This document shows positions 10,571 to 57,410 of a stretch of DNA of 64,000 nt, piece after piece. The position numbers were made by a program, and so were the translations under genes. Source of the stretch: Elmis aenea (Eukaryota > Arthropoda > Insecta > Coleoptera > Elmidae). The stretch covers positions 51,280,970 through 51,344,969 of the forward strand of contig OX393579.1 in NCBI GenBank assembly GCA_947652605.1, in the 5' to 3' direction. A model generated the notes under the pieces. That model searched no databases and had not been told where the DNA came from. It saw nothing but the letters and a program-made list of their open reading frames with translations. The first letter of the stretch is position 1; each line of letters opens with the position of its first letter.

Positions 10571-11184
10571 AATATACTATTTCATCATTTTTTTAAATTA
10601 AGTATTGTTCTAAAACAAAATGAAGATATTTTTTAAAACTATTTCTTAAGGTAAAATAGTGTTTCATTGTACCCCTTGAGAAAAGTGTGAGTGTTTCAAT
10701 CAACCCCAGTCATGGGGCATTTTAAAACATTTAGTTTTCGTTATAAAATAGCTGCTTACTTCTTAAATTCGGTTTTCTAACAAGAATTTATTAATTCAAC
10801 TACTTATTAGGTACATTAATAAGTGCCATCTTTTATCTGTAATTTTTTGTTTTAATATATACTAAAAACGTTCTGTGAAAAAACAATTTATGTGTTTCAA
10901 CGTGCCCATCGTTACCCTATTTTGTGGAACATATTTTTTTACTAGTTGGAGTAATAGGTCATTTTCGTTCGACCATTTTTTTTTAACTAGTAAAATATTT
11001 GAATATTATTTATCGAAATTGAAGCTGGGATGATTTTTGGAACAAGTGGTACAGGCAAGATTGATGCAGTTCTTGTGGATAAACAAAAAAAAAGGTTTTG
11101 AATTTTAAATTCGTATTAAGCGGACCATTTTTACTTGTTTAAAACTCATTTTGAAAAAATGTCGTAATTTTTCAAATCTACTGC
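10571..11184. other. Unrecognised AT-rich stretch
   Basis: Intronic. Nothing beyond homopolymer runs and one GT-rich phrase; no frame over 60 codons. Confidence 0.4.
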
Positions 11185-11187
11185 TTA

Positions 11188-11800
11188 CCAGGGAAGGTCA
11201 CGATACGTTGTCGCTAGAATTTGATTAAGGCTGTGTTTATTGCTTCAACTACATCAGAATTAAATGTTTTGCAGAGTTATACGTGCCACTAGCCATTTTC
11301 TTTGGAAAAAATAGGGGAAAAACTGAAAAGCTGAATAATAAAAGTAATTTTTGCGATCGCGTTGGCAATGAAACCGTCCGAGACAAAATCGAAATTCTTC
11401 TATTTACCAATGCGCGCATCCTTTGCAAGGAAAATGGTGCAAAGTTTTCTCAAAAATCTTAAACGGTTCCGAAGAAAAACGCAAAAAACGAGGGGGTTTC
11501 GTTTTTGACGTTTTTCTCCGGAACCGTTCAAGATTTTTTTAAAAACTTTGCACCATTTTACTTGCAAAGGATGCGCGCATTGGTAAATAGAAGAATTTAG
11601 ATTTTGTCTCTGACGGTTTCATGGTCAACGCGATCGCAAAAATGACCTTTTTATACAAATTTTTCAGTTTTTCTCCTATTTTTCCGAAGGAAATCGCCAG
11701 TGGCTGTATAACTTTGAAGAAAACATGGTTTTGATGTCCTTGATGCAATAAACACAACCTTAATCAAATTCTAGCGACAACGTATCGTGACCCTCCCTTG
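11188..11800. mobile_element. Fold-back element family A, complete copy
   Basis: A 613-bp palindrome. The left arm starts CCAGGGAAGGTCACGATACG and the right arm ends CGTATCGTGACCCTCCCTTG, flanked by TTA at 11185-11187 and TTA at 11801-11803. Arm homology extends almost to the centre near 11495 and includes GCGATCGCGTTGG, AATGCGCGCATCCTTTGCAA and AACGGTTCCG. The TTA duplication suggests PIF/Harbinger mobilisation, but there is no coding sequence to test this. Partial copies are at 30333, 33262, 34597, 52873 and 57761. Confidence 0.8.
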
Positions 11801-11888
11801 TTAGTAGACGCTTGTCCAGTATCAAGTAAAGTTTCCATTTTATAGAATTTAAGACAAAATATCATTAAAGATTTTAATCTTCAATTCA

Positions 11889-16478: not shown

Positions 16479-16796
16479 CAGGGTGTTTCTTAAATATTGC
16501 CAAAAACTTCGGGAGGTAATTCCTTATCGAAAATAATGGGGGCTTTTATATAATTTTTTCTTAAGACATCTTTCGAAGTTACACCCTCCTAAAGAGGAGC
16601 GGTAAAATTAGGTTTTTATTTTATTTCTCAAATTTGGATAAATGTAGGAGAATGACATTTGGTAGATGTTGTATGCTTATTGAAAGGTTTCCCATAGTAA
16701 TATTTTTAATTATCTGTCACCTTTACAAGGGGCTGAAAAGTAATTTAAAAGTTTATTCAATTATTTTTTCAATATCATTTCTTTTCATAAATGATA
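16479..16796 (+). mobile_element. One arm of a CAGGGTGTTTC element
   Basis: Starts CAGGGTGTTTCTTAAATATT and is homologous, inverted, to 39640-39925 for about 290 bp (shared ATAAATGTAGGA, CCCATAGTAATATTTTTAAT-like and GGGGCTGAAAAGT). It abuts the next palindrome at 16799 with no second terminus, so it was truncated before or by that insertion. Confidence 0.7.
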
Positions 16797-16798
16797 TA

Positions 16799-17466
16799 CA
16801 GGGTGTAGACTCGGATCACGCAACATAGCGATTTCAATGGTAAAATTTTAAAAGTCGAATTCTTGCTCCGCTAATTATTTTAGAAAAAAAGTGCAACTAC
16901 GTTTTTTGTAGAGAAAAAAATTCTGTATCCATAAATGTAATCAATATTACTTTTTCGTTTTCCAATAACTGAAAATTATGCAAATTAAAAAACGTGTTTG
17001 GACAGAAATCTGTAGTGCCTTGGAATTATGGTATGACAACTGCCCAGCCTAATGTCACTTATACTGTCACTTTGACGCGAAATTCATTCTTAATTATCCT
17101 TTATATTTTATCAAACCTTTATTTTACACAATTAGTTATGTTTTCATTGCAAGATATAATAAAAATGATAATTAAGAATAAACTTCAAACGTCAAAGTGA
17201 CAGTAAGTGTTAGTAAGATGGGCAGTTGTCGTAGCATAATTCCAAGGCACTACAGATTTTCGCGAAAACGCGTTTTTTAATGTGCTTATTTTTCTGTTTT
17301 TGGAAAACAAAAAAGTAATATTGATTACATTTATGGATACAGAATTTTTTTCTCTACAAAAAACGTAGTTGCACTTTTTTTCTAAAATAATTAGCGGAGC
17401 AAGAATTCGACTTTTAAAATTTTACCATTGAAATTGCTATGTTGCGTGATCCGAGTCTACACCCTG
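16799..17466. mobile_element. CAGGGTGTAGAC palindromic element
   Basis: 668 bp, TA-flanked (16797-16798 and 17467-17468). The arms run from CAGGGTGTAGACTCGGATCA inward through CTCCGCTAATTATTTTAGAA, CTGTATCCATAAATG and TAGTGCCTTGGAATTATGGT, all repeated in reverse in the right arm. The central spacer near 17130 is AT-rich. Non-coding; the 68-codon frame at 16994-17200 lies in the hairpin loop region. Confidence 0.85.
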
Positions 17467-17521
17467 TATAAGTAGTAAGTAAATTCAGTAGTACATTTTT
17501 TATTATAAGAAATTTATACAA

Positions 17522-17650: not shown

Positions 17651-19017
17651 TCATTTTTCGCAAAAAGTTACTTATTACTTTCAAAGTGTTACTGGTTCTA
17701 ATGTAGTGGAAAAAAGTGCTTGCTATTATGAATTTAAAATCTTCACAATTGCATCACGTTTATGCTACATAACGTACAATATTAGTAAGCATATAACTGG
17801 TTTAAATTTATTTTTGACAATTTTGCAAAGTGTAAAAAGACGAAATACCAAGTTGAACTAACTGATAACTCGGTAGTTTTTTTGACATTTTTGGTCCACG
17901 TTGAATATTGAATGCCGCTTTGCTGTTACGATTTGTGTTAATAAAAAGTAGTACAATTTTTATCGTTGAACACATGTGTAGACCGATACCAGTTTAAATT
18001 ACATTAGTATCAGATTGGCGGTCCACGGTATTGTCGTGTACATTTCAATAGAGGAACACATTTTAATTTAAATTGTAAAGTTTGCTTGTGCTTTCATTAG
18101 ACAGTTACATTAGTGAGTGTAGTAAACAGAGAATTGTAAAGAAGTTAGTAATAAATAAGAAATAAAAATCCGAGAGAAGTGATTTACCAAACAGCTGAAG
18201 TACTCAATTGGCGCAAGAGGTGACTATTGTGGATATGGAATTACGAAAAATATTAATTACATTTAAGTGAGTTTCTAAAGTTATGTAAGGCGTAAGGCCC
18301 AAGAAAAAGTAAAACTTACCAAACGACTTTTTTAAAAGACAAATAAAGTACCTACCTATTTTGTGTTCATGTAGGTACGTTTTGAAGCATCAGAAAATTT
18401 AGTTGAAAATTTACGAATTATCTAATAATTTACTTCATACAAAATTACTTCATACAACATTAGTTAATTTATATAGCATTTTAATTAATTATTTTGCCTC
18501 TTTATTGACTGTGGATCGTTTTATAAAACTATATAGCACTTGAATTGTGTATAAAGCAATTCCATATAGCATTCAATGTTTCTGTAGAGCAAATAATTTG
18601 TTTCCATTATAAATTAATGAGTGGTTTAATGCAGATTTTACTTTTAATGAAAGACACTTAACGATGCACGAAAATTAACATATGCCTCTTAAATATGGGG
18701 GAACCGTGTTGTGCCTGTTATTTATTTTGTTATGGTTGGTCGTATTGATCGTAAGGTGAGATAGTGCATTTAAATTTTTTTTTATAATTGCTAATTCCAA
18801 ACTTTATAAAGTAATTTTAGTTTAAATACACGCGGCTTGTCAGGTTATATCGTAAATGGGAATCTTAATTAAGTGAAGAAAAAACTGCATAAGTTGCAAG
18901 TTTAATCGAAGAGAATTAAGTATAAACTGTACGTAAATATGTTTTAAACCAATAAGACAGAACTTTTTTAGTTCATGATGTTTTCAGAGTAGTATAAGTT
19001 TTGAATGTCGCCGAATA
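17651..19017. other. Unrecognised intronic sequence
   Basis: Contains an 89-codon frame straddling 17592-17861 with no recognisable motif. The rest is AT-rich without termini; one phrase ACCTACCTATTTTGTGTTCA near 18350 is unremarkable. Confidence 0.35.
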
Positions 19018-19019
19018 TA

Positions 19020-19763
19020 CAGTGTGTCCAAAAGCTATGGAATATGCTATATATCTCAGTAAATATCCACTTTAGGGGAAATTTTTTGAATAAAAGTTGT
19101 TTGGTACTTAGTTTTCCACCATAAGACAAAATTTAAATATTTTTCCTTCGAATAATAAAAGCGCAATGAAAAACAATTGAATTTTTTTAAATGGCAAGGT
19201 ACACCTATATTATACTCATTTGATAGAGATTTTTTTTGGATGGGGTCACCTTAAAAATGAAGTTTATGCTAAGAGGCTGGAGAATATCGAAAATTTAAAT
19301 GATCGTATTAGAAAAATTACACTTAAAATGGTTGGGAATGTTATAAACGGGTTTAAAAACTGAGTTTATCATTGCCAAGCTGTAAATGGTTTACAGTTTA
19401 AACACTTACGGTAAATTTCGTCAAAAAAATTTAGTTCTTATGATGTTTTTGTTGGAAATAAATACTAATCAATTAAAATAATTTTTGCATTTTTCTCAAA
19501 AAGTTGCTTAAGTAAGGGTACTAAAGTTTAGCATCAATGAAAAGAAAAAAAAATTCTCTATCAAATGAGTATAATATAGGGGTATCTTGTCAAAAAAAAA
19601 CAGATGGTTTTCATGGCGCTTTTGTTATTCGAAAAAATAGAAAGCTAGAAATTTGTTTTATGGTGGAAAACTAAGTACCAAACAACTTTTATTCAAAACA
19701 TTTTTCCCTAAAGTTGATATTTACTGGGATATATAGCATATTCCATACCTTTTGGACACACTG
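19020..19763. mobile_element. CAGTGTGTCCAAAAG palindromic element
   Basis: 744 bp flanked by TA. Ends CAGTGTGTCCAAAAGCTATG and CATACCTTTTGGACACACTG. Arm identity includes AGTTGTTTGGTACTTAGTTT. The terminus differs from the others by CAGTGTG in place of CAGGGTG, marking a separate subfamily. No coding sequence. Confidence 0.85.
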
Positions 19764-19765
19764 TA

Positions 19766-20772
19766 TGTGTTTTTGTTATGGAAAACGGAATTTGAAAAGT
19801 AGCATTTTTTTTTCATGTCTTTAGATGGTTTTTTACGCGGTGATCAACTTTTTTACTCTTCATACTTGTTGATACTTTTAGGAACAACAATCTATTGGGT
19901 TGTATAGCGTTGTATTGGGAATTTTATTGCTTACTTATTGGTGTACAATTCTAAAATGTGCCTTGGAAAAACAAATTCTCTATCGTCTAAAAAACATTTG
20001 AATAGGTATTCAAAAAACAAAAGCCACCGTTCGATTCCTCAAATTCCATTTGATTGAATAATTGATTTCTTAAATATGTTTTTAAGTACAGAAGAGAAGG
20101 AAATAAGAAAATAAATTTTCGGATTTTGTCCGATTATTTTTGGAATGTATCGGCTTATCTTAAATCTGAAAAGATTAAAAAAACTAAATTTACTGACTTT
20201 GTTGCTCTTGACTTCCTAGATTATTCATATTTAGAAAATATAGTTAAACACTCCGTAGAAATTAAACATTGTTGTGAAAATGTTTATATTTTTAAAGAAA
20301 AGCGCTTGTAATATGCATTTCTTTTATATTTTTATTTTAATCTGATTTGAACTTGGTAAAATTTCATTAACTGTCTCATGAAATATGATTTTTTTCCGAC
20401 GGTTTGTTTGCCAAATTGCTCTCGTTTCGCGTATTAAAATAACGAAGTTTATTGCTTGTTCAGAAATTTACTTTTGTAACTAAATTCAATTTTGTCGTTC
20501 AACATAATTTTCTCTAATGGGTTCTAAATCACAAACGGGGCTTTCGAGTAAGATGGGGCGGGTCTTCTTGTACAAACAATTATGTCGAATCGTCGACTTC
20601 ATTAGTTTGCATGGAGATTAAACAAATGACTGTATTTTAATGTCAGTCGGATAATTTTAGCAATTTTTACAGGCTTTTAAACTTTGGCTTTTGATGTTGA
20701 GTTAAACGACTGTTTTTGAATTTGACGAGCGTTTGTGGAAGAAATTTAATTTGCTCAACAAGTGAAAACATA
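19766..20772. other. Unrecognised intronic sequence
   Basis: A 61-codon frame at 20126-20311 (+) has no recognisable domain. Nothing else of note. Confidence 0.35.
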
Positions 20773-20898
20773 TACAGGGTGCACCACGACCCTGAGATTC
20801 TTCGATAGCTCCTTTATTAATAAAAATATCAAAAAATGTTTAATACAAATATTGTGCGAACCTATTTTCTACATAACCTAAAATTATTTTCAAATATA

Positions 20899-20958
20899 CA
20901 GGGTGTTTCGTTTGACCGGCACATATAAAAATTTAATTTTTTTAAATAGAACACCCTG
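20899..20958. mobile_element. 60-bp TIR cassette in left arm
   Basis: CAGGGTGTTTCGTTTGACCG to the terminus AACACCCTG, flanked by TA on both sides: a complete pair of termini only 60 bp apart. Its mirror is at 22492-22551. Confidence 0.75.
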
Positions 20959-21199
20959 TATATTTTTACATTTTTGGATTCCTCTTTAAGTTTACTTTAA
21001 AAAATGTATAAGGTTATATGGGTCTTAAGTCAACCGTTTTCGTAAAATTTACATTTTTGTGAAAATTTTGAGCGATACAGCACTTTCAATTTTTTTTTAC
21101 ATTAAAGTTATTTAAAAAAGCAGTAAAATTTCGTTTAAAATTGAGATTGACAATAGATTAATTAACACTTTGCGCTAGCTACATTTTAAAAATATTATA

Positions 21200-21277
21200 C
21201 AGGGTGTTTTTTACGCTTGGTCAAACTTGTGAAACTCTAAACATCGATAAGTCATTTTTCTTAAATGCAACACCCTG
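21200..21277. mobile_element. 78-bp TIR cassette in left arm
   Basis: CAGGGTGTTTTTTACGCTTG to GCAACACCCTG with TA at both sides. Diverged copies of this cassette and its flanks occur at about 46862-46937. Confidence 0.75.
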
Positions 21278-21597
21278 TATATTTTTACATTTCCTTGTAG
21301 AGAATTTAATTGTCTTTCGAAATTATTAAGCATGTCCTATACCTAAAGTTAATATTTTTCGAGCTTTCTCGATTTTTATTAGTATTACTAAGGCAATTAA
21401 AATATTTTAAAGTCGGTCATGGACGTAAGTCGTAATTTTTCAAAGAATTTTTTAACAAAATAATAAAAAGAGCTGCAACTTTAATTTTAGGCTAAAAATG
21501 TACCCCATTTTTCCGAAATTTATCGTATAAATTGTTCAAGAATATGTTCATGTTCTACGCACAGCCGTAGACGTTGTCTGAAAGACTCTAGCACCCT

Positions 21598-21801
21598 TTA
21601 TAACATTTCGGGGGTTATACCATCAAAAGCAACACGAATCCTGTTCTGCACATCGTCAGCAGTTGTTGGGGGGTCTTGATACACTTGTTTTATGGGTCCC
21701 CACAAAAATAAATCTATAGGGGTAAGATCAGGTGACGTAGGTGGCCAGGAGATTGGTCTACCTCGCCCTATCCATCTATTAGGATATTCTGTGTTCGACA
21801 A
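21598..21801 (-). pseudogene. Mariner-like transposase, C-terminal catalytic fragment
   Basis: The minus-strand frame contains GRPISWPPTSPDLTPIDLFL followed by WGPIKQVYQDPP, and ends FDGITPEML. The pattern WPPxSPDLTPxDxFLWG is the third-acidic-residue region of Tc1/mariner DDE transposases as found in many insects. Only about the last 65 residues remain; no N-terminal, HTH or first two catalytic residues are adjacent, so it cannot be active. Part of it is duplicated in inverse orientation across the palindrome centre. Confidence 0.85.
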
Positions 21802-22171
21802 CTACATTACTTGCTGTGTTGCTTTTAATGGTATAACCCCCGAAATGTTATCAAGAGTCTTTGAGACAACATCTGCGGCTGTGCGTAGAACATGAACAAG
21901 GATATAATTTTAAACAATTTATACGATAAATTTCGGGGAAAAGGGGTACATTAATGGACTAAAATTAAAGTTGCAGCTCTTTTTATTATTTTGTTTAAAA
22001 ATTCTTTGAAAAATTACGACTTACGTCCATGGCCAACTTTAAAATATTTTAATTGCCTTAGTAATACTAATAAAAATCGAGATAGCTCGAAAAATATTAA
22101 CTTTAGGTATAGGACATGCTTAATAATTTCGAAAGACAATTAAATTCTCTACAAGAAAATGTAAAAATATA

Positions 22172-22249
22172 CAGGGTGTTGCATTTAAGAAAAATGACTT
22201 ATTGATGTTTAAAGTTTCACAAGTTTGACCAAGCGTAAAAAACACCCTG
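22172..22249. mobile_element. 78-bp TIR cassette in right arm
   Basis: Mirror image of 21200-21277. Confidence 0.75.
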
Positions 22250-22491
22250 TATAATATTTTTAAAATGTAGCTAGCGCAAAGTGTTAATTAATCTATTGTC
22301 AATCTAAATTTTAAACGAAATTTTACCGCTTTTTTAAATAACTTTATTGTAAAAAAAAAATTGAAAGTGCTGTATTGCTCAAAATTTTCACAAAAATGTA
22401 AATTTTACGAAAACGGTTGACTTAAGACCCATATAACCTTATACATTTTTTAAAGTAAACTTAAAGAGGAATCCAAAAATGTAAAAATATA

Positions 22492-22551
22492 CAGGGTGTT
22501 CTATTTAAAAAAATTAAATTTTTATATGTGCCGGTCAAACGAAACACCCTG
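22492..22551. mobile_element. 60-bp TIR cassette in right arm
   Basis: Mirror image of 20899-20958, with near-identical sequence. Confidence 0.75.
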
Positions 22552-22742
22552 TATATTTGAAAATAATTTTAGGTTATGTAGAAAATAGGTTCGCACAATA
22601 TTTGTATTAAACATTTTTTGATATTTTCATTAATAAAGGAGCTATCGAAGAATCTCAGGGTCGTGGTGCACCCTGTATAACTCAACAGATTTTTTTTGCA
22701 ATGATTTTGTGATTTGCTTGATTATATTGTATTAATGTGTAA

Positions 22743-22924
22743 GAGGCCGTTACACACACGGTTTTGCGCATGGTTTTGCACATGGATAAAACCGTGTGTG
22801 TGTGTGCAAAACCAAGGTCAATAAAATCGCTTAGTTTTAGCGTTCACACACACGGTTTTGCACATATGCAAAAGGCAAAACCAAGTCAGCAAAACCTTGT
22901 GCAAACGTGCGTGTAAACGGCCTA
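22743..22924. mobile_element. Harbinger-like miniature element, second copy
   Basis: 182 bp, ends AGGCCGTTACACACACGG and CGTGTAAACGGCCT, flanked by TAA at 22740-22742 and 22925-22927. The same family as 12141-12353, rich in GGTTTTGCACAT units. Confidence 0.8.
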
Positions 22925-23655: not shown

Positions 23656-24428
23656 GTAAGTGCCAAACATTAATTTTTAACTCATGATAAAGCTAGTGAA
23701 GACGGCGAGTACAAAAGTGGAGTATTTAAGCTTAAAAGTTTAAAATGATACTCAATGTCGTAAAGTCTATGTAGTGTTAACTAATAAAGTCTACAAATTT
23801 ATATAAAAACGAAAAATGAATCTGAAAAAAAATTTATTTTTCCGTTGCATCGTTGTTCAGTAACGTGTTTATTAATTACTAATGACGTATAGTAAAAGCA
23901 AATATATCACTACTCGAAATTTAGGGCAAGAAGTATGTGTATTTCAAAGCTATAAAAAGAAATAATAACTATAACTCTATGAGTTATTTATTGATTCTCA
24001 AAAGATTGTTGCGTTTGTAAGACTACTTTTCTTCTTAGTTGGTAATCGTATATCGAGGTTTTATTTTATTTGCTTGAGTTGGAAGTATCTGAACTTGTAA
24101 CTTAAATATTTTATGGCAACAGTGGCGTAGCTAGGGTAATTTGCGCCCGGGGACAAGACACAAAATCTGCGCCCCTTCTCGTATCGAGAGTCTGGAGACT
24201 CACTGGGGCCGGAGTCCCCCAAAAAATTGTTATTTTCAGTTTATATTATGGTTCATAAATAGAATAAAAACTAAAAATTCTTTTTATAGATTGAAACAAT
24301 TTATTTAATAAACACTAAAATACTAAAATAAATACTAATTAATTATTAAAATTACTAAATACTAATAAAAACTAAATTCTATACATATTTATTGTACTGG
24401 TCCGTGAGTGTGTATGTGCTGTAGTATA

Positions 24429-25053
24429 CAGGGTGTGTAAAAATTGGCGGAAGCGCTAAACGTGGCGATGTTCTTCGTAAAATTCTAAGTCGAAAATCTT
24501 AATACGAAAATGTTGTACCATGCTTGCTGTGTCTGCAAGAGGTCCTCAAAGTTTTGGCATTCAGTCCTTTAAAAAGCGTTATTATTTAATACTTGCAAAT
24601 GAAAAAGCTGCAATTTGGAATAAAAATAGATTTCGAATAGTATTTTTTCCTAGATATTATGTTCTTCCTTTCAAAAATTGGTGTTGAAAATATGTAAATC
24701 ACTGATTTGAATGAAAATAATACATATGGCAACATTGTCATTAGCTGTCATCTCTGTTTTTCTCGTAATTATTTCTAGTTTGTGTTTTACGATACCCAAA
24801 AGTTTGCAGCTATGTTTACGAACTGAAGGCTTTCAGTTCAAACAAAAATTGTAAATACCTAAGTAAAAATTGCTGATAAAAAAATGTCCAAACGCAAATC
24901 AATGTATGCAATGTTGCCAATTTTTTTCTTCTTTAAATGGTTCCTGAGGCCATAGGAAAAATGGTACAACATTTTTGTATCAGGATTTTCGACTTAGAAT
25001 TTTACGAAGAACATCGTCACGTGTAGCGCTTCCGCCAATTTATACACACCCTG
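24429..25053. mobile_element. CAGGGTGTGTAAAAATTGGC palindromic element, copy 1
   Basis: 625 bp between TA dinucleotides. The arms contain GGCGGAAGCGCTAAACGTGG and TTCTAAGTCGAAAATC in mirror image. Its twin is at 29356-29979. Insertion into a hAT element dates it as younger than that element. Confidence 0.85.
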
Positions 25054-25072
25054 TATATGAATTGGAATTCTA

Positions 25073-28109: not shown

Positions 28110-29339
28110 CAGGGTTGAGCAGATTTAAATCAATTGATTTAAATCGTGATTTAAATCAAGTGATTTTTTTTTTAAATCATTGATTTAAATCAAGTGATTT
28201 TTTTTTAAAGTATCAATTTAAATCACAGATTATATGAGTACAATATAATATTTATAATAAAACAAAATTGTATTACTACATAATAGTAATTAAATACACG
28301 AAATGGTGAATAAACCATATCAATTTGCTCTTGTAAAGTAATATTCATTGTGGAAATGCAATAATTCAAAAAATAAATGACAAGTTTTTGACGTTAGTGA
28401 AGTGAACAGTCAGTTTTTTCAATTTCCACGGCACTCTATTGCTTCGATAACGATTTGAAGAAAAATGTCGAATATCTCGAAAAGTATGAGTTTTGGGTAT
28501 AGGACATACTTAACAAAATATGAAGTTCTTTTAAAGACGAATTCGATGATATAAAAAAATACAGGGGTTTGCATTTGAAAAAATCGAGTTACGAGTTTTT
28601 GAAAATCATGGAAGTTGCCACCTATTTATAAACACCCCTGTATGTGTGATTCAAATTTTTTCATATCGAGCGAACAGTGAAATTTTTTCTGCATGTTCAT
28701 ACCAAATTACAACTCTGTACTTCAAAATAGCTTCAGGAGAATTTTTTAAATAAAGACTTACAACCTTGAATAATTTAGAAAATTAATTTTGTTTACAACG
28801 CCGTATAAAAACCTATAGTATTTTATATTGATGCAAAGCTAAAATTAAGGCGGTCAAAAATATTAAATAAAAATTGGGTGTTGTATTTGAAATATAAAAG
28901 TTGCTGTTAGTTCCAGAAAGGTGACTCACCCTGTATATTTGAAAATATTTTTATTGTGTTGTTTAGAAAAAACTGTATAAAATAGCATTTGAATCAACTT
29001 CATATCTCAAGCCGTTTAGCCACAATCGACCGATCCCGCACTAATGACACCCTGTATATAATTAATTAAACATCATCATTTAGCACTGATTTTTTCAAAA
29101 TTCTTAATCATTATATTTAATTTTTCATTTTGACAAAAATTCACCAATGAATTTAATATATTGGTTATTAAATATATTAGCACAAAACAGAAATAGCATG
29201 TGAATATGTCACTAAATTCGATAATATGGTACATTTGATTTAAATCAAAAAAATCTGATTTAAATCAAAAAAATCTGATTTAAATCAAATAAATCGATTT
29301 TTTTGATTTAAAAAAAAATCATGATTTTTATCCACCCTG
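28110..29339. mobile_element. hAT-type element with ATTTAAATCA subterminal arrays
   Basis: 1230 bp. Ends CAGGGTTGAGCAGATTTAA and, inverted, CAGGGTGGATAAAAATCATG. Perfect 8-bp duplication CTCTCAAT at 28102-28109 and 29340-29347. Both ends carry tandem GATTTAAATCA units, forming self-complementary arrays. The interior is made of CAGGGTG-family fragments, not transposase. Related to 7379-9248. Confidence 0.85.
28440..29054. mobile_element. CAGGGTG-family fragments inside the hAT element
   Basis: A TA-flanked pair, CAGGGGTTTGCATTTG to ACACCCCTG (about 28562-28638), resembles the 78-bp cassette at 21200. The preceding TTTTGGGTATAGGACATACTT matches the arm text near 21330. Further termini, TCACCCTG at 28933 and ACACCCTG at 29054, are unpaired. 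Confidence 0.55.
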
Positions 29340-29355
29340 CTCTCAATAGTCCATA

Positions 29356-29979
29356 TAGGGTGTGTATAAATTGGCGAAAGCGCTACACGTGACGATGTTC
29401 TTCGTAAAATTCTAAGTCGAAAATCTTGATACAAAAATGTTGTACCATGCTTGCTATGGCCTTAGGAACCATTTAAAGAAAAAAAAATTGGCAACATTGC
29501 ATACATTGATTTGCGTTTGGACACTTTTTTATCAGCAATATTTACTTAGGTACTTACAATTTTTGTTCGAACTGAAGGCCTTCAGTTCGTAAACATAGCT
29601 GCAAACTTTTGGGCATCGTAAAACACAAACTAGAAATAATTACGAGAAAAACAGAGGTGACAGCTAATGACAATGTTGCCATATGTATTATTTTCATTCA
29701 AATCAGTGATTTACATATTTTCAACACCAAATTTTGAATGGAAGAACACAATATCTAGGAAAAAATACTATTCGAAATTTATTTTTATTCCAAATTGCAG
29801 CTTTTTCATTTGCAAGTAGTAAATAATAACGCTTATTAAAGAACTAAATGTCAAAACTTTGAGGACCTCTTGCAGACACAGCAAGCATGGTACAACATTT
29901 TCGTATTAAGATTTTCGACTTAGAATTTTACGAAGAACATCGCCACGTGTAGCGCTTCCGCCAATTTTTACACACCCTG
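29356..29979. mobile_element. CAGGGTGTGTAAAAATTGGC palindromic element, copy 2
   Basis: 624 bp, the same family as 24429-25053. The left terminus has mutated to TAGGGTG; the right reads GCCAATTTTTACACACCCTG followed by TA. It starts 8 bp after the target duplication of the hAT element that ends at 29339. Confidence 0.85.
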
Positions 29980-29981
29980 TA

Positions 29982-30332
29982 TACATATAAACATATCAGA
30001 CTACCTGGTTACTAACATGTGTTTTAATTGTCAATTTTTGACATTATGTTTGACATATTAACATGTTCTGTGATATTAACTTCTACGTTGTGTGCTCTGA
30101 CTCCGTGCAGTTTTACATATTCTAGTGATAAAATTGACTGCCGTTGGTAAACAATTAAGGAAAATTTACACGTAGAAAACGACAAAATAACTTTTCTGAG
30201 TACACCAGAAACACTTCTTCTCAATTCATTTTTACCCTGTGATCGGTTGTTCGGAGTTCTTTAAAAAGAATTTTGAACTGGCCAATAAATAAAACACAAA
30301 CACAAAATTCACTATTTTTCATTATGATACTA
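29982..30332. other. Unrecognised stretch
   Basis: A 66-codon minus frame (30024-30224) has no recognisable content. No termini seen. Confidence 0.35.
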
Positions 30333-30483: not shown

Positions 30484-31836
30484 TAAGGAAATTAGATTGT
30501 TTCAAAATCCATTTGACTGTGATGTGGCAGAATGTTCTGTGGTGGCAGATGTCAAGGCAAATTCAAATGGAAATTATTGAACTTCAGGAAAATGATCATA
30601 TTAAAGACAAATACAAGGAAAGAAATTAATCAATTTCTTTAAGTTTTTGAACCCTGTACAGTTTCCAAATTTAAAGAAGTTTGCTCGAAAATGTATCTCC
30701 ATTTTTGGGACAACGTATCTTTGCGAAAAAACTTTTTCGCGGATGACTTATCAAATCAAAATACAGGGCAAATTTATTGGATGAATATTTGAAGTCGCTA
30801 CTTGTAAATGGCGTTTCAAAATTTTAACCTCAATTTATTAAGATTTTAAAAACACAAAAACAGTTCCATCATTCTCATTAATGGTTTTAGTCTAATTTAT
30901 AATGAATATATGAGAATTTACTTGTAGTGTTTGTCATCATGATTGTATAATAACTTAATCTCACGTACGTAACTAGTTTACGAAATTTTGTGCTTTCGAT
31001 AAAATTCATATAATTATGTAGCATGTAGGTACTTACATTTTTTTTACCTGCAAAATAATCATTTAAAAAAAAATCATTTTGCAATAATTTTACCACGAAA
31101 AAAGATTTGTTTTAATGATCTTTATTTTTTTAAACCGACAAATGAATTCCAAATATATATAAAAATACTGAAAGAACCAACGAGACGAAGTTAAAAAGTC
31201 TTGGGTTTTCCAAAACTGATGTTTGTTTAAGAGAAATTTAAAAAAAAACGTCAGCTAGATGGCCCGACTTATTAGTTCTAGTTGAACAATTTGGCAGACA
31301 TATTTTTTGACGTTATCATATAACCCGGTACCTAAGCTTTTTGTTATATTTCACTTTGGCGCATTTTTGTGACTGTTATTACCATTATCAGCATAAAATG
31401 GTTTTAAAAATACATAGTAATGCCCCTGCTACTGTCGCATTCTTTTTCCTCCGACAATCTATTCAAAATCCCTTTTTAATTCAAAGCACATCGCGGTTTT
31501 CATTTAAACGTTAAACTTCTATGGCATCTGATCCGATTACAAATAATTTAAATGCATTTTAATTAACGACGGCCAGGCAATGTTTAATTCCAGCTGGTTT
31601 CCACTTTATAAATGTATGTTTCGCTATTTGTGCAAGCTCAGTTATTGAATTATGGTGTCACAAAATGCGCGCCATGTGGTAATAGAATTTCAAATAAATA
31701 TTATCTAATGCGAACATTCCAGAGAAAAACAGCGTCAAATTGACACGAACAAGAATTTTAACATAACTCGTTATTATTAATGTTTTCCTTTGCATATCAC
31801 GAATAACGCAGGAATCAGTTCCTGTGTTGGGATAAG
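30484..31836. other. Mostly unrecognised; degenerate transposon text at 30650-30840
   Basis: Around 30650-30765 the phrases CCCTGTACAG, AAATGTATCTCC and TACAGGGC recall decayed CAGGGTG termini without a usable pair. The remainder to 31836, including the 69-codon minus frame 30887-31096, is unrecognised. Confidence 0.35.
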
Positions 31837-31838
31837 TA

Positions 31839-33054
31839 CAGGGTGGTCCAAATTCGATGGGATTGCATGGGTATCTCGGTTAATATTGAAGATAGAGAAA
31901 CGGTTAAATTACCAAAAATGTGCAGTTTTTTGAGACAAACTCAGAACCGTTTTCAAAAATATTCTATCATTTCCGGTTTTCGAGTTATTGAATAGAAAGT
32001 CTTTTTTTGTCATATTAATAATGTGTCATATCTCCATTATTGTTGTAAATATCAAAAATATTTATGAAGATTATTTTTAGATATTTTTATGTTTAATTTG
32101 ATTATACAAAAAAAATAAATTTACGCTCGCTGTTAAAAAGTTATGACACAAACTTACCTTTTTTTAAATGGGAGTGATAGTTGGCTATGACCTATTTAAA
32201 TTCCTTATTTTTTTTTCATTCCAAATATATATGGGTTGATATATTTATTTTCAAAAATACGCAAGTTACGAAGGTTTTTTAGTTTTTTTTTTTAAGAAAA
32301 TCATAGTAGGCTGTGTAAACAAAAAAAAAACAAGGCGTAAAACCTTAAAAAAACTCATGTAGTACAAGTAACCAAGGTTTTTTAATTTGTTGTTGAGATA
32401 AACATTGTAAATATTTGAACATAAGATAACAACGATATAGTCGAAATCAGTAGTATGGTAGTATTTTGCTGTTCCAAAATTTTTGATGTTTATTACAACA
32501 ACAAATTAAAAAACCTTGGTAGCTTGTACGACATGAGTTTTAAAAGGTTTTACATCTTGTTTTTCTTCTTTGTTTTCACAGCCTACTATGATTCTCTTAA
32601 AAAAAAAAACTAAAAAACCCTCGTAACTTGCGTATTTTTGAAAATAAATATATCGACCCTTATATATTTGGAATGAGAAAAAAATAAGAAATTTAAATAG
32701 GTCATAGCCAACTACCGCTCCCACTTAAAAAAAAGTAAGTTTGTATCATAACTTTTTAACGGCGAGCGTAAATTTTTTTTTTTTAGTATAATCAAATTAA
32801 ACATAATAATATCTAAAAATAATCTCTATAAATATTTTTGATATTTAGAACGATAACGGAGATATGACACATTATTAATATGACAAAAAAACAATTTTTA
32901 TTCGATAACTCGAAAACTGGAAATGATAGAATATTTTTGAAAACGGTTCTGAGTTTGTCTCAAAAAACTGCATATTTTTGGTAATTTAACCATTTCTCTA
33001 TCTTCAATATTAACCGAGATACCCATGCAATCCCATCGAATTTGGACCACCCTG
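31839..33054. mobile_element. CAGGGTGGTCC palindromic element
   Basis: 1216 bp between TA dinucleotides. Ends CAGGGTGGTCCAAATTCGAT and its complement. The arms mirror through GTTTTCAAAAATATTCTATC, CTCCATTATTG/CGATAACGGAG and TTTTTTAATTTGTTGTTG to a centre near 32440. No coding content; the 72-codon minus frame at 32506-32724 is part of the arm. A one-arm copy is at 645-1188. Confidence 0.88.
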
Positions 33055-33056
33055 TA

Positions 33057-33261
33057 CATGAATTCATTGATAAAAAATCATGTAGGTAATTTTGTATGAA
33101 GTGATTTTTAATTAGCTGTATTTTTGATTGTCTTTCCTTTTTCTCCTTTGATAAATTAACGTTTCTTTAAATCAATAGTAACAAAATATGTCACTTGTTT
33201 GTGTTAAAAAAAAATTTACAAAACACACATTTTTATGAGCTATTACTTAGTACCTTAGTAG
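33057..33261. other. Unrecognised spacer
   Basis: About 200 bp of AT-rich sequence between a palindrome end and a family A fragment. Confidence 0.4.
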
Positions 33262-34590: not shown

Positions 34591-34596
34591 AAAAAA

Positions 34597-35172
34597 TTCC
34601 TTAGGAAAAATAGGGGAAAAACTGAAAAGTTGAATAATAAAGGTAATTTTTGACATCGCGTTGGCCATGAAATCGTCAGAGATAAAATCAAAATTCTTCT
34701 TTTTACCAATGCGCGCATCCTTTGCAAGTAAAATGGTGCAAAGTTTTTGGAAAAATCTTAAACGGTTCCGGGGAAAAACGCGAAAAACAAGGCCCTTGTA
34801 AAAACAATTTCTCCTATATTGAAACGTCTATGCAAGTCGCGTAGATTTAGTTATGCAACTTCTCAAATCATAGCGCTTTTGCAGGGGTTTCGTTTTTGGC
34901 GTTTTTCTCCGGAACCGTTTAAGATTTTTTCAAAAACTTTGCACCATTTTGCTTGCAAAGGATGCTCGAATTGGTAAATAGAAGAATTTCGATTTTATCT
35001 CTGACGGTTTTAATGGCCAACGCGATCGCAAAAATTACATTTATTATTCACCTTTTGAGTTTTTTCCCTATTTTCCGTAGGAAATGGATAGTGGCACGTA
35101 TAACTCTGCAAAACATTTAGTTTTGATGTTCTTGATGCAATTCTAGCGACAACATATCGTGACCCTCCCCGG
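34597..35172. mobile_element. Fold-back family A, nearly complete copy lacking left terminus
   Basis: The left arm begins internally at TTCCTTAGGAAAAATAGGGG. The right arm is complete to TATCGTGACCCTCCCCGG. The loop is larger than in the 11.2 kb copy and contains CTCAAATCATAGCGCTTTTG. Confidence 0.8.
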
Positions 35173-36752: not shown

Positions 36753-36754
36753 TA

Positions 36755-37488
36755 CAGGGTGGTACACATAGAAGAGGGGATCTCGTAAAAGTATAAATTA
36801 GACAAATTGTTCCCCTTTTTGAGACCAATTCAGTGATGCTTTAATGTTTTAAAAAAGCTTCATGGCACGCTAGATAAATACCAAAAATCAAAATGGGCAT
36901 TTTTTAAATTGTTAATAACTCGTTTATATTTGATGGTACAAAAATATTTTTGGGCAAAAAGTTGTAGATTGTTTTACGTACTGTAAAATACAAAAATTCA
37001 TTTGTTTTAACATTATTTAAATTCATTGTAGCTTCATAGGGACTAACGAATTTTATTTGTTTTGAGCCTAAATATAAAAAAAAATACATTAAACCTTATA
37101 TTATTAATAAAAGGGAAAAAAAAACTTGTTTATGAAGTCATAGCCAACTATGGTTTCCATTAAAAAAATGCAAGTTTGTAATTTATATCAGAATTTAAAC
37201 AATATTGAAACAAATGAATGGTTTCATTTTATAGCGTGTAAAAAAATCTACAACTTTTCCCCGAAAAATATTTTTGTACCATCAAGTATAACTGAGTTAT
37301 TAACGATTTTAAGAAAATACCCATTTTGATTTTTGTTCGTTATCTAGCGTGCCATGGAACTTTTTTAAAACATTCAAGCATCACTGAATAGGTCTCAGGA
37401 ACGAAAACAATTTGTCTAATTTGAACTTGTTTGTAGCTCTTACCGTTTACGAGATCCCAATAGTGGCCCTTTCTTGTGGACCACCCTG
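36755..37488. mobile_element. CAGGGTGGTACACATAG palindromic element
   Basis: 734 bp, TA-flanked. The arms share ATCTCGTAAA/TTTACGAGAT, CATGGCACGCTAGATAA-like and TTTTTGGGCAAAAAGTTGTA-like blocks, and the right end reads GTGGACCACCCTG. The arms are more diverged than in the 31.8 kb element. Confidence 0.82.
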
Positions 37489-37542
37489 TATGAGCTCGTA
37501 GCCGTTAACTTGATTAGGGCTGCAGTGATTGAAACCCCAATA

Positions 37543-44275: not shown

Positions 44276-44279
44276 GTAA

Positions 44280-46080: not shown

Positions 46081-46689
46081 AAAAGCTGAAAATAAGGAAC
46101 CGAGTGGAAAAATGAAATTTTGAGAAATACTGTTTTGCACTTAAAATTGCCATAGCATCGGGACTATTCATATTATGTACCTATATCGTCATCAGTTCCA
46201 AGGGTTTCTATGAAGTATGACATTTTTTAGAAAACTACCCCTAATAATTTTTTTTAAGGAGCCAGTCAGCTACCACTTGGACACTATTGTCAATTAAATT
46301 TCTAAAGGTATTTACACCAAAATTGTTGTTAAATTGATTAACAGTAACATATTCCAAAGTTCTGCATTATCAATGTGTGAAAAAACATATTAAACTCCTG
46401 AACGATTGATGTTAGCTACAACAATCTCTACATGCTTTTGATATAAAATTTGATTTACAATACAAAAATTACAAATGTACAGGTTGGCCTATTTACAGTT
46501 GAAATGTTGCGTATCATTAGGCATAATCAAAATAAGCTAATAATGTTTAGGTTATGTAGTTAATAACTAAAAAAAAAAATATGTTAAACACACAGTACTG
46601 CGCTAAAGTATAGAAACAGTCAAATATCAAGAACAATATTTAAGATAAAACTAACAATGAAATTCAATGAAAATGTTGAGGTTGAGGTT

Positions 46690-47060
46690 GCAATTAAATT
46701 ACCGGTTAAACCGGAAACAGACTCAGATTTTGTAAATTTTTAGCAATACAGTGTTTTCAAAATATTGCAACCTTTAAAAATTTTGATAGGCAGTCGTCTG
46801 AAATTTAGATTGCGAATAGATTAATTAACGCTTTGCACCACCTACATTTTTAAAATATTATACAGGGCGTTTTTTACGCTTGGTCAAACTTGTGAAACTT
46901 TAAACATCGATAACTTATTTTTCTTTAATACCCAGCCCTATAGAAAATTTAATTGTCCATTAAAAGCAATCAGCACGTTTTATACCTAAAAATATTTTTC
47001 AAGAAATAGCGATTTTATCTATTGGAACATCGTAATATTTTCAAGTAGGCTTAAAAGGTA
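46690..47060. mobile_element. Fragment related to the arm of the 20.8 kb palindrome
   Basis: GATTAATTAACGCTTTGCAC, TTTAAAATATTATACAGGGC and ACGCTTGGTCAAACTTGTGA match 21150-21240. The cassette ends CCCAGCCCTATA, a decayed terminus. It is more diverged than the two arms of the 20.8 kb element are from each other. Confidence 0.65.
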
Positions 47061-47594
47061 GACAGCGGTAATTTTGGAGCAATTTTTGGTATAACTATAA
47101 TAAAATAGCCTATTGTTTTGTCATAGAATGATGATTGCATTTGTTTAATCACATCTTTAAATGTTTTTTGAGTGATAGTAATCTTTTTCCATTCTCATAA
47201 TTTTAAAATTTAATTAAAATCATGCAAAATTTCTCTCAAAAGTAGAAAGAAACAAAAGAACATAATTTTAGACATTTTTAATATCAAAAAAGTGTGCTAT
47301 TATATTTGTTTGTATTGAAAGTTTAATTTATATTTAATATGATCAGCAATAAGCAAATTGACAATCCCTTAAAAAACAGTTGAAGAAATATCAACAGACA
47401 AATGCCAACCTGCGATTGTTCGCATTTTATAGCATTAAAATACTCATTTTTGTAATTTTTTCCTAACACAAAAAAATATATATCAATATTTTTTTTTTTG
47501 CTATACATATACATAACAGATTTAAATTTTGCCTAAAGATTACAAATTTTTGCTCATTTAACTGACTCCTATAGCTCTTATGGTGATACACCCT
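47061..47594. mobile_element. AT-rich stretch ending in an unpaired CACCCTG terminus
   Basis: The terminus GATACACCCTGTA at 47585-47596 has no mirrored partner nearby. Upstream TGACTCCTATAGCTCTTATG may be its arm. The left limit is uncertain. Confidence 0.35.
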
Positions 47595-53017: not shown

Positions 53018-54720
53018 TGAGCTAAGTCCAGTTTGTTTATAATAATTATAATTATAATCTTTATTGTTAACCATTCATTAGGATAAATGAAGTTTTAATA
53101 CTTACCTTATCGAAGTTTATTTAAAATTAAGAGTGACACACAACCACACCATGTTTAGCAAGTCAGATTGCTGATGCAAACTTTGAAATGTAGCGAATTA
53201 TTCTTAAACCAAACTTAACAAAAGTGATGCATAATGATAAATTAATAAAACTAAATCTAATTTGTATATGTAAAATAACATATTTTGTTCAAATATTTTT
53301 CCTGTTATAATAAGTTTAATAAACGTTTTGGTACGAAATTTCCAATTCTTTTAATTTGCACGGTTGATTACCAACTCTGTTGGTTTAAATAAGCTTTAAT
53401 TCTAAAAATGTCTTTTACTAAATAAATATACTTACTTATATTAAGTAACTGTGCGTTAAACTGGCCGAGTTTAAATTGAACTGCAACGATAAAAAAACAA
53501 AACGAATTAAATACAGCATGAAATAACGAATTTCTGTCCACATAACAATCAGATAAATTAAATTACATCAGCCTACAGCGATGGTCTATTTACAAAAATT
53601 ACAAGACCCTTTAAAAACCGGGCAAAAAGTTAAATGACATTAAATTACATAGTACAGACGTATTATTACGAACGGCAAGCCGTGAACCAGCTTGTTCTTG
53701 TCCCTTTTTCGTCAACATGATCGGAGAGCATCAAAAATAAATGTAAACATCAAACAACTTCAGCACCTGTTTGTTCGGGCTTACTGTGAATGGGCATCTA
53801 AACTTGCCGATTATTACGAAGTGGTTTTTTGCTACGCTCAAATCAGTTTTGTCAGCAATTACTCATTGCTTCACAAGCAGTTGAGTGTACGCGTTGAACT
53901 GAATTGAAAAATTAATCATAGGTATGCTAAATATTAAATTTGAGTTAAACCAGGTGTCCGCAAATCAAGGCACGACATAAGTCTGGACCAAAAAAATAAG
54001 CGATTTCAAATCTTTAATATTTATTACTAACTTTAATATGCGTGAAAGGAAAATATTTGAAGTAAATATGAAACAAATGCAATAGCTTTTAATTGTATAT
54101 TTAAAACGTTGTAAAGGTTTGAACACTAAACTCCTAGGTGATATCGAGTTCGCTGCAGTTTTTAAGTTAAACTTGACTGAAAGTTCCGTCGAGATAACCA
54201 GCCCGCATTTATTACCTCAAATTGGCAGAGGGTTAGATTAAATTTTACGTTAAAGCACACAATATTTTAACCGTTGTATGCAAAAAGAGCCTTGTGTTTT
54301 AGTTATAAAGTTATCAGTACTCTCCAGCAAAATATCATTAATTTCAGACTAGAAGCACAAAGGGTGTCCAAAAAATGTATCTCCTTTTTACTTATCAAAC
54401 ATTTATTAGTGGCGTAGTAAAATTGGGTCACTGTAGCTATTCTGTTAATCAGATATTCTTCCAATTTGCCTATTTCTATAATAGTTCTTCCCTAATATTT
54501 AAAACTTACCATCTGCTGTATGATTTGTTGTTTGAATAGAAGAATGGATTAAAAATATCAAATGTTGCATGTTGCTAAATGCTTTTAGAAAGATATTTTT
54601 AAGGATAGTCCTAATCGGTCAAAAATAGAGTACTTTTGCAAAGATAGTGAGCTTACAGAACGTCCCAAGAGTGGAATTCATAGGAAAATTTCAATTTTTC
54701 CTAGTATAATGCGTTTTAAA
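53018..54720. other. Unrecognised 1.7 kb stretch
   Basis: A 71-codon frame (53692-53907, +) with slightly better composition has no recognised domain. At 54359-54380, AGGGTGTCCAAAAAATGTAT resembles a CAGGGTG terminus without a partner. Confidence 0.35.
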
Positions 54721-55483
54721 TACAGGGTGATTGATTGAGACCGGGCATTAAAAATATATGAAGAATGAAAAAGGGTATGGATCTGAAATTTTGGTTATGA
54801 CCATAATGGCATCTGATATGTTTAATGAAAATATTTTCAAGATGGCGACACTTCCGTAATTACCGAAAGTTGACGTCTACTTTCTTATTTCAAATACAAT
54901 GGTCTATTTTTTATTGCGTATTTGGATTCAAAACGTTATTTTAGAGGGACTTTTATTAGCATTTCCTATACCTAAGTGCAGCAATTTTTGAGATTTTTGG
55001 ACTTTTTTGAAAATTTTTCGATTTTCATCGTGATGCTTAATAATATCTACCACCGCCATTTTTGAAGAAAACACGCTTAAATTTAGACCATGCCTAGAAG
55101 AAACCTTGGACTACATCCTGGATATTTTGCAATCGATGCATTACTTACAGGGTGTCCAAAATTTAATTTTCTTTTAATACAACTTCAGACCACCAAAACT
55201 CGTTTTTTTCAAATACAATGCCCAAACTTTTTTTTCATTTTTTAATGCAAAATTTCATTCTGCATCAATCTGTATTAGCGTTTCCTATACCTATCTGCAA
55301 CAATTTTCGAGTTATTAAGAATTTTTGATAAAGTTAAGAGAAATTGCAACATTTTTAAATAGTAGGCCTTGGAAATGACAACAATTGCCAATACTTAATA
55401 ACCGTCAACCACTTTTATCGCGTTTGTCTGAAGTATCCATGAAAATGGATTACCAAGAGTATTCAAACACGGATATTTTGAAT

Positions 55484-55705
55484 TTATTTTACATTCTTGG
55501 ACAAATTCAGAAGATTATTGAAAGTGTGAACGAATAGTTGTGTATTTTTAATGTAGCTTGTACAGCATAAGTAGTATGTTAAACCCGAGTCTTGCGCTAC
55601 CAATCGAATTGATCGCTGAGGATGGTCATTAAAATATCTCAGGATGTTAACTTTGTTAGTTTCAGCATTTGTCACACGCTTAGGTCGAATACAAGCAGAT
55701 TTCAC
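55484..55705 (-). pseudogene. Transposase helix-turn-helix remnant
   Basis: The frame contains NKVNILRYFNDHPQRSIRLV followed by AQDSGLT, the pattern of the HTH (NPxxSxRxxAxxxGVS) that follows DUF4817 in insect mariner-like transposases. The following text is palindrome arm, so the gene stops here. Confidence 0.65.
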
Positions 55706-55738
55706 TCTTCTAAATTGAAAAAAAATTGATTCTATTCA

Positions 55739-55957
55739 TTAAAATTTCTGTCTGGTCATTACAGTCAAATAAGGATAACTCTCACTGACCACGCGGCAAG
55801 TTCTTTCAATAATCTTGTTACATTCTTCATGAATATAAAATAAGTTCAAAATATTCGTGTTTGAATACTCCTGATTATACATTTTCATGGATGCTTCAGA
55901 CAAACGCAATAAAAGTGGTTTACAGTTATTAATATTGGCATTTGTTGTCATTTCCAA
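55739..55957 (-). pseudogene. DUF4817-like domain remnant
   Basis: The frame contains EYSNTNILNLFYIHEECNK, then RTCRVVSESYPYLTVMTRQK. This resembles the DUF4817 domain (YxxxExxxIxFxxGExxxNxxxAxRxYxxxFPxRxxPxxxxF) found at the N-terminus of mariner-like transposases in arthropods. It lies directly upstream (minus strand) of the HTH at 55484-55705, in the expected order. Confidence 0.65.
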
Positions 55958-56605
55958 GGCTTACTATTTAAAAATGTTGCAATTTCTCTTAACTTTATCA
56001 AAAATTCTTAATAACTCGAAAACTGTTGCAGATAGGTATAGGAAACGCTAATACAGGTTGATGCAGAATGTAATTTTGCATTAGAAAATGAAAAAAAAGT
56101 TTGGGCATTGTATTTGAAAAAAACGAGTTTTAGTGGTCTGAAGTTGCATCAAAAGAAAATTAAATTTTGGACACCCTGTAAATAACGCATTGATTGCAAA
56201 AATTCCAGGATGTAGTCCAAGGTTTCTTCTAGGCATGGTCTAAATTTAAGCGTTTTTTCTTTAAAAATGGCCATGTTCGATAATATTAAGCATCACGGTG
56301 AAAATCAAAAAATTTTCAAAAAAGTCCAAAAATCTAAAAAATGACTGCACTTAGGTATAGGGAATGCTAATAAAAGTCCCTCTAAAATAACGTTTTGAAT
56401 CCAAAAATGCACTAAAAAATAGACCATTTTATTGAAAATAAAAAAGTAGACGCCAACTTCCGGTATTTGCGGAAGTGTCGCCATCTTGAAAATATTTTCA
56501 ATAAACAGATCAGATGCCATTATGGTCATAACCAAAATTTCAGATCCATACCCTTTTTCATTCTTCATATATTTTTAATGCCCGGTCTCAATCAATCACC
56601 CTGTA

Positions 56606-57410
56606 TATAATTTAACCGAATTATATAGATCGTGAACACTTTCGTCTAAGTTTAAGTCATGTAGACTGGAAAACCTTGTGTTTACGTGTAGCATCGTGTC
56701 AATTTATTAACAACGGCTTTTCAGATATAATCGTTTGTTTCTGTTTAATGTGCCAACTTACTAATTATTCGTCTTATTATGTTCCTCACCTGCTGTTCGC
56801 CTATCTCATGCCTTTTATTGAAATAAACAAGTCTGTACACGCGATTGCTTGTCTAAACAATAAAAAAAATCATCGAAATTAATGGTTAACAATTAAACTT
56901 CTTTTCTATAATCATAAACACGATTAATCAGAATCCGATGCAATATCCAGCAGAACTTAAAACTAATCAATAGGAAGGTACATAGATAAATAATCTAGCA
57001 AACAGCAACCTACACGCTCTCTACGGCCGCATTATTAATTACAATCTCTGTTCTTGTAACCGATCTACACAACTGTTATTTTTCAACCTTTGAGATGACT
57101 CCTTAGCTGCTGGGGGGCCGTGTTACTTGTTTTAACTTGCGGAAGAATTAGAGACAGCAAACATAAGTAATAGAAACGCAATAAAATTAATCTAACGCGG
57201 TAGGAATTTGTAGGAAATTATTGATAGAGGAAGGAGTTAATCGGTTGGCACGGAAAATATACATTTTGCTGTCAATATTGGGTGTGTCTTAAGTTAATGT
57301 TAGATGTAATTTCCTTAATAATATGGCTTGGATGTGTTTTCAGAAGCATGTTTCGAGTTTTTAAAACGTTGTTTGTTAAAGAGTAGCTACTTTCCTTTAG
57401 ATGTTTTAGT
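56606..57410. other. Unrecognised stretch
   Basis: A 68-codon frame (56676-56882) is unremarkable. Bases 57000-57130 are GC-richer. No repeat partners. Confidence 0.35.

What the first reader, a model, noticed from the sequence alone, without database searches (positions are those of the whole stretch)
20775..22675. Mirror-symmetric concentric termini in a giant palindromic transposon
Seen: outer TA-CAGGGTG ends and at least two inner CAGGGTG pairs sit at equal distances from both ends (for example 124 bp), so a stack of nested insertions is present in both arms. Independent insertions could not hit mirrored positions. The simplest explanation is that a composite element was copied into an inverted duplication afterwards. 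The outer ends still look competent to mobilise the whole.
Basis: partly seen in the sequence, partly recalled or inferred. Interest (0 to 1): 0.8.

Follow-up and report, generated by a model that had tools for sequence, protein, structure and literature searches.

The report
Palindromic jumping gene with repeated ends
A broken, almost mirror-image copy of a jumping gene carries extra copies of its own end signal at the same places in both halves, and comparison with relatives suggests these are old built-in parts of its ends rather than a pile-up of later insertions.

Summary
At 20771-22679 two arms of about 865 bp are 95% complementary around a 180-bp spacer. Each has TA-CAGGGTG at the tip and inner CAGGGTG/CACCCTG pairs at +124/+177 and +425/+496 (right arm +426/+497).

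A stack of nested insertions is not supported. A second palindrome (P2, 54721-56605) and two one-armed relatives (r28 near 28.3-29.06 kb, r46 near 46.5-47.1 kb) have related arms, and all keep an end-like site near +425. Two tandem modules 319 bp apart are clear in this element (P1) and in P2. The inner sites therefore look like old parts of a long, modular terminal inverted repeat (TIR).

P1's centre holds the last ~100 codons of a Tc1/mariner-type transposase, P2's centre the first ~120; each is partly mirrored in both arms. One full-length 356-aa transposase matches both.

Best reading: foldback-like, non-autonomous derivatives of a DD41D-type long-TIR transposon, made when both ends of an excision gap copied inward from the same element end (mechanism inferred). 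Galileo (P superfamily) is the published precedent. The host genome could not be searched, so copy number, intact parents and empty sites are untested.

The parts
20771..21635 (+). P1 left arm (offset 0 = 20775): long TIR to about offset 716, then mirrored transposase C-terminal end
   Evidence: Inverted-repeat alignment, 95.2% over 872 columns
21816..22679 (-). P1 right arm, reverse complement of the left arm
21636..21815 (-). 180-bp spacer, present once: transposase coding sequence with YPNRWIGRG and SPDLTPID motifs, minus strand
   Evidence: Translation and tblastn
21523..21815 (-). C-terminal ~97 codons of a transposase in one frame with two internal stops; the last ~37 codons lie in the left arm
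   Evidence: matches P0015 to its last residue region
21818..21926 (+). mirrored copy of the C-terminal coding end in the right arm (frame broken)
   Evidence: VAFNGITPEMLSRVFE at 21818-21865 and QFIR at 21915-21926
20897..20960 (.). inner unit A, left arm: TA-CAGGGTG (+124) to CACCCTG-TA (+177)
   Evidence: same in right arm 22490-22553
21198..21279 (.). inner unit B, left arm: TA-CAGGGTG (+425) to CACCCTG-TA (+496)
   Evidence: same in right arm 22170-22251
54716..56610 (.). P2, second palindrome (arms 54716-55524 and 55803-56610, spacer 278 bp) with inner CAGGGTG at +425 in both arms
55525..55888 (-). N-terminal ~120 codons of a transposase in one frame with two adjacent stops; the first ~28 codons are mirrored at 55439-55524 (+)
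28301..29056 (-). r28, one-armed relative: tip at 29056, inner TACAGGGTG at +121, TACAGGGGT at +414; no second arm found in the window
46478..47105 (+). r46, one-armed relative (tip inferred, TACAGGTTG at 46478): TACAGGGCG at +383; the matching stretch is 46728-47105

Best explanation
P1 is a non-autonomous, foldback-like derivative of a Tc1/mariner-type (DD41D clade) transposon whose ends were long modular TIRs of about 700 bp. Each TIR held the terminal CAGGGTG plus two tandem modules about 319 bp apart with further end-like sites, probably extra transposase-binding sites (function inferred). Shown: inner sites shared with relatives, module duplication in P1 and P2, transposase C-terminus mirrored in P1 and N-terminus mirrored in P2. 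Inferred: the ancestor had this TIR at both ends. Inferred: in repair of an excision gap both broken ends paired with the same element end, because long TIRs are interchangeable, copied inward into the ORF by unequal lengths and were joined. A 3'-end event gave P1, a 5'-end event gave P2. The product could still be moved in trans by a transposase that recognises TA-CAGGGTG (inferred).
For: Arms of P1, P2 and r28 match each other above all 200 resampled controls, and so does P1 against r46. P1 and P2 match at the same offsets, 165-297 and about 461-651, and each repeats a ~135-bp stretch 319 bp further in. P1's centre is the C-terminal end and P2's the N-terminal end of a transposase, each partly mirrored. 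P0015 (356 aa, DDE_3) matches P2 with residues 1-129 and P1 with 252-356. A C-terminal profile matches Sleeping Beauty and Mos1. P1 arms differ by 12/720 up to offset 716 and by 14/137 beyond it (0 of 500 permutations as strong); in P2's left arm the MKM start of the ORF is at offset 716. Unequal inner ends (spacers 180 and 278 bp) fit unequal copying. Galileo shows ORF ends recruited into both TIRs (PMC4168063).
Against: No full-length parent with both TIRs was seen and the genome could not be searched. P1 and P2 are different families: P0015 is 58% identical to P2's piece but only 38% to P1's. Direct P1-P2 similarity covers the modules, not the outer ~155 bp. In P2 the strongest changepoint is at offset 95, not 716, although divergence does rise beyond 717 (44/719 vs 14/85). 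P2 lacks the +124 site and intact CACCCTG partners. The module repeat is weak within r28 (29 bp, E 0.15). Faster change near a palindrome centre would also explain the P1 step.
Confidence: 0.62

Rival explanations
1. Whole-arm inverted duplication: a one-armed 3' fragment was duplicated tail to tail (hairpin or template switch), creating the entire palindrome at once; the inner sites were already in the single arm, and the parent had no long TIR at its other end.
For: Coding sequence is mirrored in P1; one-armed relatives r28 and r46 exist in the window.
Against: Arms derived from a 3' end (P1) and from a 5' end (P2) are homologous at the same offsets, which implies that both ends of the ancestor had the repeat. 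The step in divergence at 716 in P1 is not expected from one event.
Confidence: 0.2
2. The inner units are very old mini-elements (60 and 78 bp with TA flanks) that inserted into the TIR before P1, P2, r28 and r46 split, and were kept since.
For: Each unit in P1 is a CAGGGTG...CACCCTG inverted pair with TA on both sides.
Against: Units A and B share sequence beyond their borders and lie in a module repeat, so at least one arose by duplication; the CACCCTG partners are intact only in P1.
Confidence: 0.12
3. One reading: recent stack of nested insertions in one arm, then inverted duplication of the composite.
For: Inner sites are mirrored and look like element ends; TEs carried in both TIRs are known in Galileo (PMC4168063).
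Against: The +425-type site is in four of the four related copies examined (P1, P2, r28, r46), in altered form in two.
Confidence: 0.04
4. Assembly artefact.
For: P1 itself is seen at one locus only.
Against: 26 substitutions plus indels between the arms, unequal inner ends, different outer flanks and a second palindrome of the same plan.
Confidence: 0.02

Closest known systems
LTIR-like Tc1/mariner elements, DD40D/DD41D, Apismar5.1 and 5.2 of the pea aphid (PMC5490172; passages seen)
   Same: D-type third catalytic residue with 40-41 spacing; TIRs much longer than in mariner (466 and 460 bp); non-autonomous short derivatives.
   Different: Aphid TIR sequences printed there do not begin CAGGGTG; the MITEs there are explained by internal deletion; the paper says TIRs show no palindromic motifs. 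Here TIR-like arms reach about 700 bp, hold repeated end-like sites, and coding ends are mirrored.
Galileo, P superfamily (PMC4168063; passages and section 10)
   Same: Long, dynamic TIRs; ORF end recruited into both TIRs in inverted copy; tandem repeats inside TIRs; TIR-to-TIR transfer.
   Different: Different transposase superfamily; 7-8-bp target duplications; here the transposase is Tc1/mariner-like and the ends carry TA.
Tetris, a foldback element of Drosophila virilis (PMC4079207; passages)
   Same: Long TIRs with internal tandem repeats; suggested extra transposase-binding sites (it cites Galileo work for this).
   Different: No coding remnant; target duplications 8-10 bp; unclassified transposase.
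Tc3 / Sleeping Beauty IR/DR ends (recalled, not read)
   Same: More than one transposase-binding site inside a long TIR.
   Different: Two direct sites per TIR; here up to five end-like sites in both orientations.
Tc1-like MITE_83.0 of Rhodnius prolixus (PMC4678618; passages)
   Same: Termini begin TACAGGGTG.
   Different: 489-1073 bp, marked doubtful ('Tc1-like ?') and without partner there; sequence after the tip differs.

Membership tests
Tc1/mariner superfamily | DDE/D transposase of the Tc1/mariner type | tested here: met
   C-terminal profile A1 matches Sleeping Beauty (8.8e-10) and Mos1 (4.5e-7); P0015 has DDE_3 above the cut-off; P1's piece matches P0001 at 1.6e-25. Pfam on the window's own short pieces gave nothing above cut-off.
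Tc1/mariner superfamily | TA target-site duplication | tested here: inconclusive
   TA stands outside CAGGGTG at both ends; without an empty site the duplication is not proved.
DD41D (rosa/LTIR) clade | 41 residues between second and third catalytic Asp | tested here: inconclusive
   P1 has lost the second Asp. Of 15 relatives, 9 have both motifs: 8 with spacing 41 (one of them with Gly for Asp), one with 42.
LTIR-like elements | long TIRs at both ends of a full-length transposase gene | not testable with these tools
   Inferred from homologous P1 (3') and P2 (5') arms; no full-length copy seen.
Foldback-like element | very long inverted repeats making up most of the element | tested here: met
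   Arms 865 + 864 of 1909 bp.
Galileo (P superfamily) | P-type transposase | tested here: not met
   Transposase remnant is Tc1/mariner-like. It may work like Galileo TIR growth but is not a Galileo.
MITE | many copies of uniform size | not testable with these tools
   Genome search unanswered (seven calls).

The most novel reading that the evidence does not exclude
Interchangeable long TIRs make palindromes. In a Tc1/mariner long-TIR lineage, excision-gap repair that uses one element end for both broken ends repeatedly yields one-ended palindromes from either end of the gene (P1 from 3', P2 from 5'), and continued copying between TIRs keeps the arms alike up to the ORF border, where divergence jumps.
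Probability: 0.33. Interest if true: 0.6.

Novelty: new variant of a known kind. Interest (0 to 1): 0.45.

Why it matters
How long palindromic, non-autonomous transposons arise is not settled. Two elements in one window, one holding only the back and one only the front of the same kind of transposase gene, each partly mirrored, are what a one-ended gap-repair origin predicts. They extend to Tc1/mariner a trait that a 2014 paper called so far unique to Galileo (PMC4168063). Counting 5'- and 3'-derived palindromes across a genome would test the mechanism directly.

Tried and rejected
Viral-contig pattern scan: 13 stretches, with matches to the element pieces of at most 35 bp. Scans with protein alignment A1: 3 viral stretches and 12 genome stretches matched a pattern, none encoded a relative by tblastn; the second allowed genome-contig scan was not used. 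Pfam on the window's short peptides: nothing above cut-off. P1's arm shows no clear relation to the arms of 16.8k (z 0.2), 19.0k (z 1.2) or 31.8k (z 2.7, below the control maximum). The idea that the outer 100 bp are always the most alike: P2 p 0.013, 16.8k p 0.003, 31.8k p 0.09, P1 p 1.0, so it is not general. The ten paper searches listed no paper that I recognised as describing palindromes from both ends of a Tc1/mariner gene; I saw listings and passages only, and most subscription papers are not held.

Full report
What is there. The window is AT-rich and has two reverse-transcriptase fragments; the host was not identified. The palindrome P1 spans 20771-22679: arms of 865 and 864 bp, 95.2% complementary, around a 180-bp spacer. 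Each arm has TA-CAGGGTG at its tip and inner pairs at +124/+177 and +425/+496, mirrored with a 1-bp shift in the second pair. CAGGGTG is far above chance in the window (34 vs 1.56), because several elements here end in it.

Neighbours. Other long inverted-repeat elements with this tip or one change in it are 16795-17470, 19017-19766, 24425-25057, 29353-29982, 31836-33057, about 36753-37490, and 54716-56610. Of these seven only the last (P2) has CAGGGTG sites inside its arms. Two further stretches related to P1's arm, r28 (28301-29056, minus strand) and r46 (about 46478-47105), have no second arm that I could find in the window.

Are the inner sites nested insertions? P1 and r28 align over offsets 93-608 at 61%; P1 and P2 align at the same offsets, 165-297 (60%) and about 461-651 (63-65%); P2 and r28 align over 104-694 at 58%. 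The outer ~155 bp of P1 and P2 do not match significantly. r46 matches P1 best, at 73-76% over the part that aligns by blastn. All these pairs tested score above the best of 200 resampled controls. Within P1, offsets 158-295 repeat at 477-614, and within P2, 165-296 repeat at 484-615: 319 bp in both; both exceed controls. In r28 the internal repeat is weak (29 bp, 312 bp apart, E 0.15), but its second module matches P1's first (66%, E 1e-10). An end-like site near +425 is present in all four: exact in P1 and P2, TACAGGGGT at +414 in r28, TACAGGGCG at +383 in r46, whose own tip is inferred. The +124 site is in P1 and r28 (+121), not in P2 or r46. Intact CACCCTG partners are in P1 only. In P1 the right-hand flanks of units A and B are alike beyond the units. 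So the inner sites came with an old, duplicated TIR module rather than with insertions into this element. Insertion before all four split is not excluded.

What the centres are. P1's centre reads on the minus strand, in one frame with two internal stops, as the last ~97 codons of a transposase; about 37 of these lie in the left arm and recur in mirror, frame broken, in the right arm. P2's centre reads on the minus strand, in one frame with two adjacent stops, as an N-terminus of ~120 codons; the first ~28 recur in mirror in the left arm. Two short database proteins match the P2 piece at 76% and 74%. P0015, 356 aa, found with a query that held both pieces, matches P2 with residues 1-129 (58%) and P1 with residues 252-356 (38%). 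It has DDE_3 above its cut-off and 41 residues between the last two Asp; of 15 relatives 9 have both motifs, 8 with 41 and one with 42. P1 and P2 therefore come from different families of one clade.

What follows. P1 derives from the 3' end and P2 from the 5' end of the same kind of gene, yet their arms are homologous at the same offsets. The ancestor most likely had the same ~700-bp TIR at both ends (inference). The mirrored inner sites then need no later duplication; only the mirrored coding does (about 113 bp in P1, about 85 bp in P2). P1 arms differ by 12/720 up to offset 716 and by 14/137 beyond (0 of 500 permutations as strong). In P2's left arm the first M of the ORF is at offset 716, and P0015's start aligns six bases further in. 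P2 is also more diverged beyond 717 (44/719 vs 14/85, p 0.0016), but its best changepoint is at 95 (2 of 500 permutations). TIRs kept alike by copying while the inner repeat drifted would explain this; faster change near a palindrome centre is an alternative.

Mechanism (inferred). Excision leaves a gap; each broken end normally pairs with its own TIR in the sister copy. With long interchangeable TIRs both can pair with the same end and copy inward to different depths; joining gives a palindrome with one ORF end at its centre and an unequal spacer. P1 and P2 fit. At P1's join a few bases (up to AGCAACAC) could have been shared, which cannot be verified without the parent.

Known kinds. Aphid LTIR elements (PMC5490172, passages) are DD40D/DD41D with 460-466-bp TIRs. 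Galileo (PMC4168063, passages and section 10) has ORF ends recruited into both TIRs, TIR tandem repeats, and TEs carried in both TIRs. Tetris (PMC4079207, passages) has internal repeats in foldback TIRs. A Rhodnius MITE begins TACAGGGTG (PMC4678618, passages). IR/DR ends of Tc3 and Sleeping Beauty are recalled. Verdict: a new variant, a foldback-like Tc1/mariner derivative.

Noticed in passing
16795-17470, 31836-33057: Two near-perfect palindromes without spacer, tips TA-CAGGGTG, 88% and 91% self-complementary; no transposase recognised in them by tblastn with P0001-P0012.
   Followed up: partly
19017-19766: Element with CAGTGTG tips; its centre (19232-19408, +) matches the same type of transposase C-terminus.
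   Followed up: partly
24425-25057 and 29353-29982: Two copies with the same tip sequence, in opposite orientation of their centres as far as the translations show, ~100-bp terminal inverted repeats.
   Followed up: no
11181-11807, 34596-35085: Further palindromes of 627 and 490 bp without CAGGGTG tips.
   Followed up: no
22752-22875: Just right of P1, a cluster of short imperfect inverted repeats built on ACACACGGTTTTGCRCAT, possibly another small inverted-repeat element.
   Followed up: partly
4384-4803 and 43919-44296: Two reverse-transcriptase fragments (RVT_1) on the minus strand.
   Followed up: no
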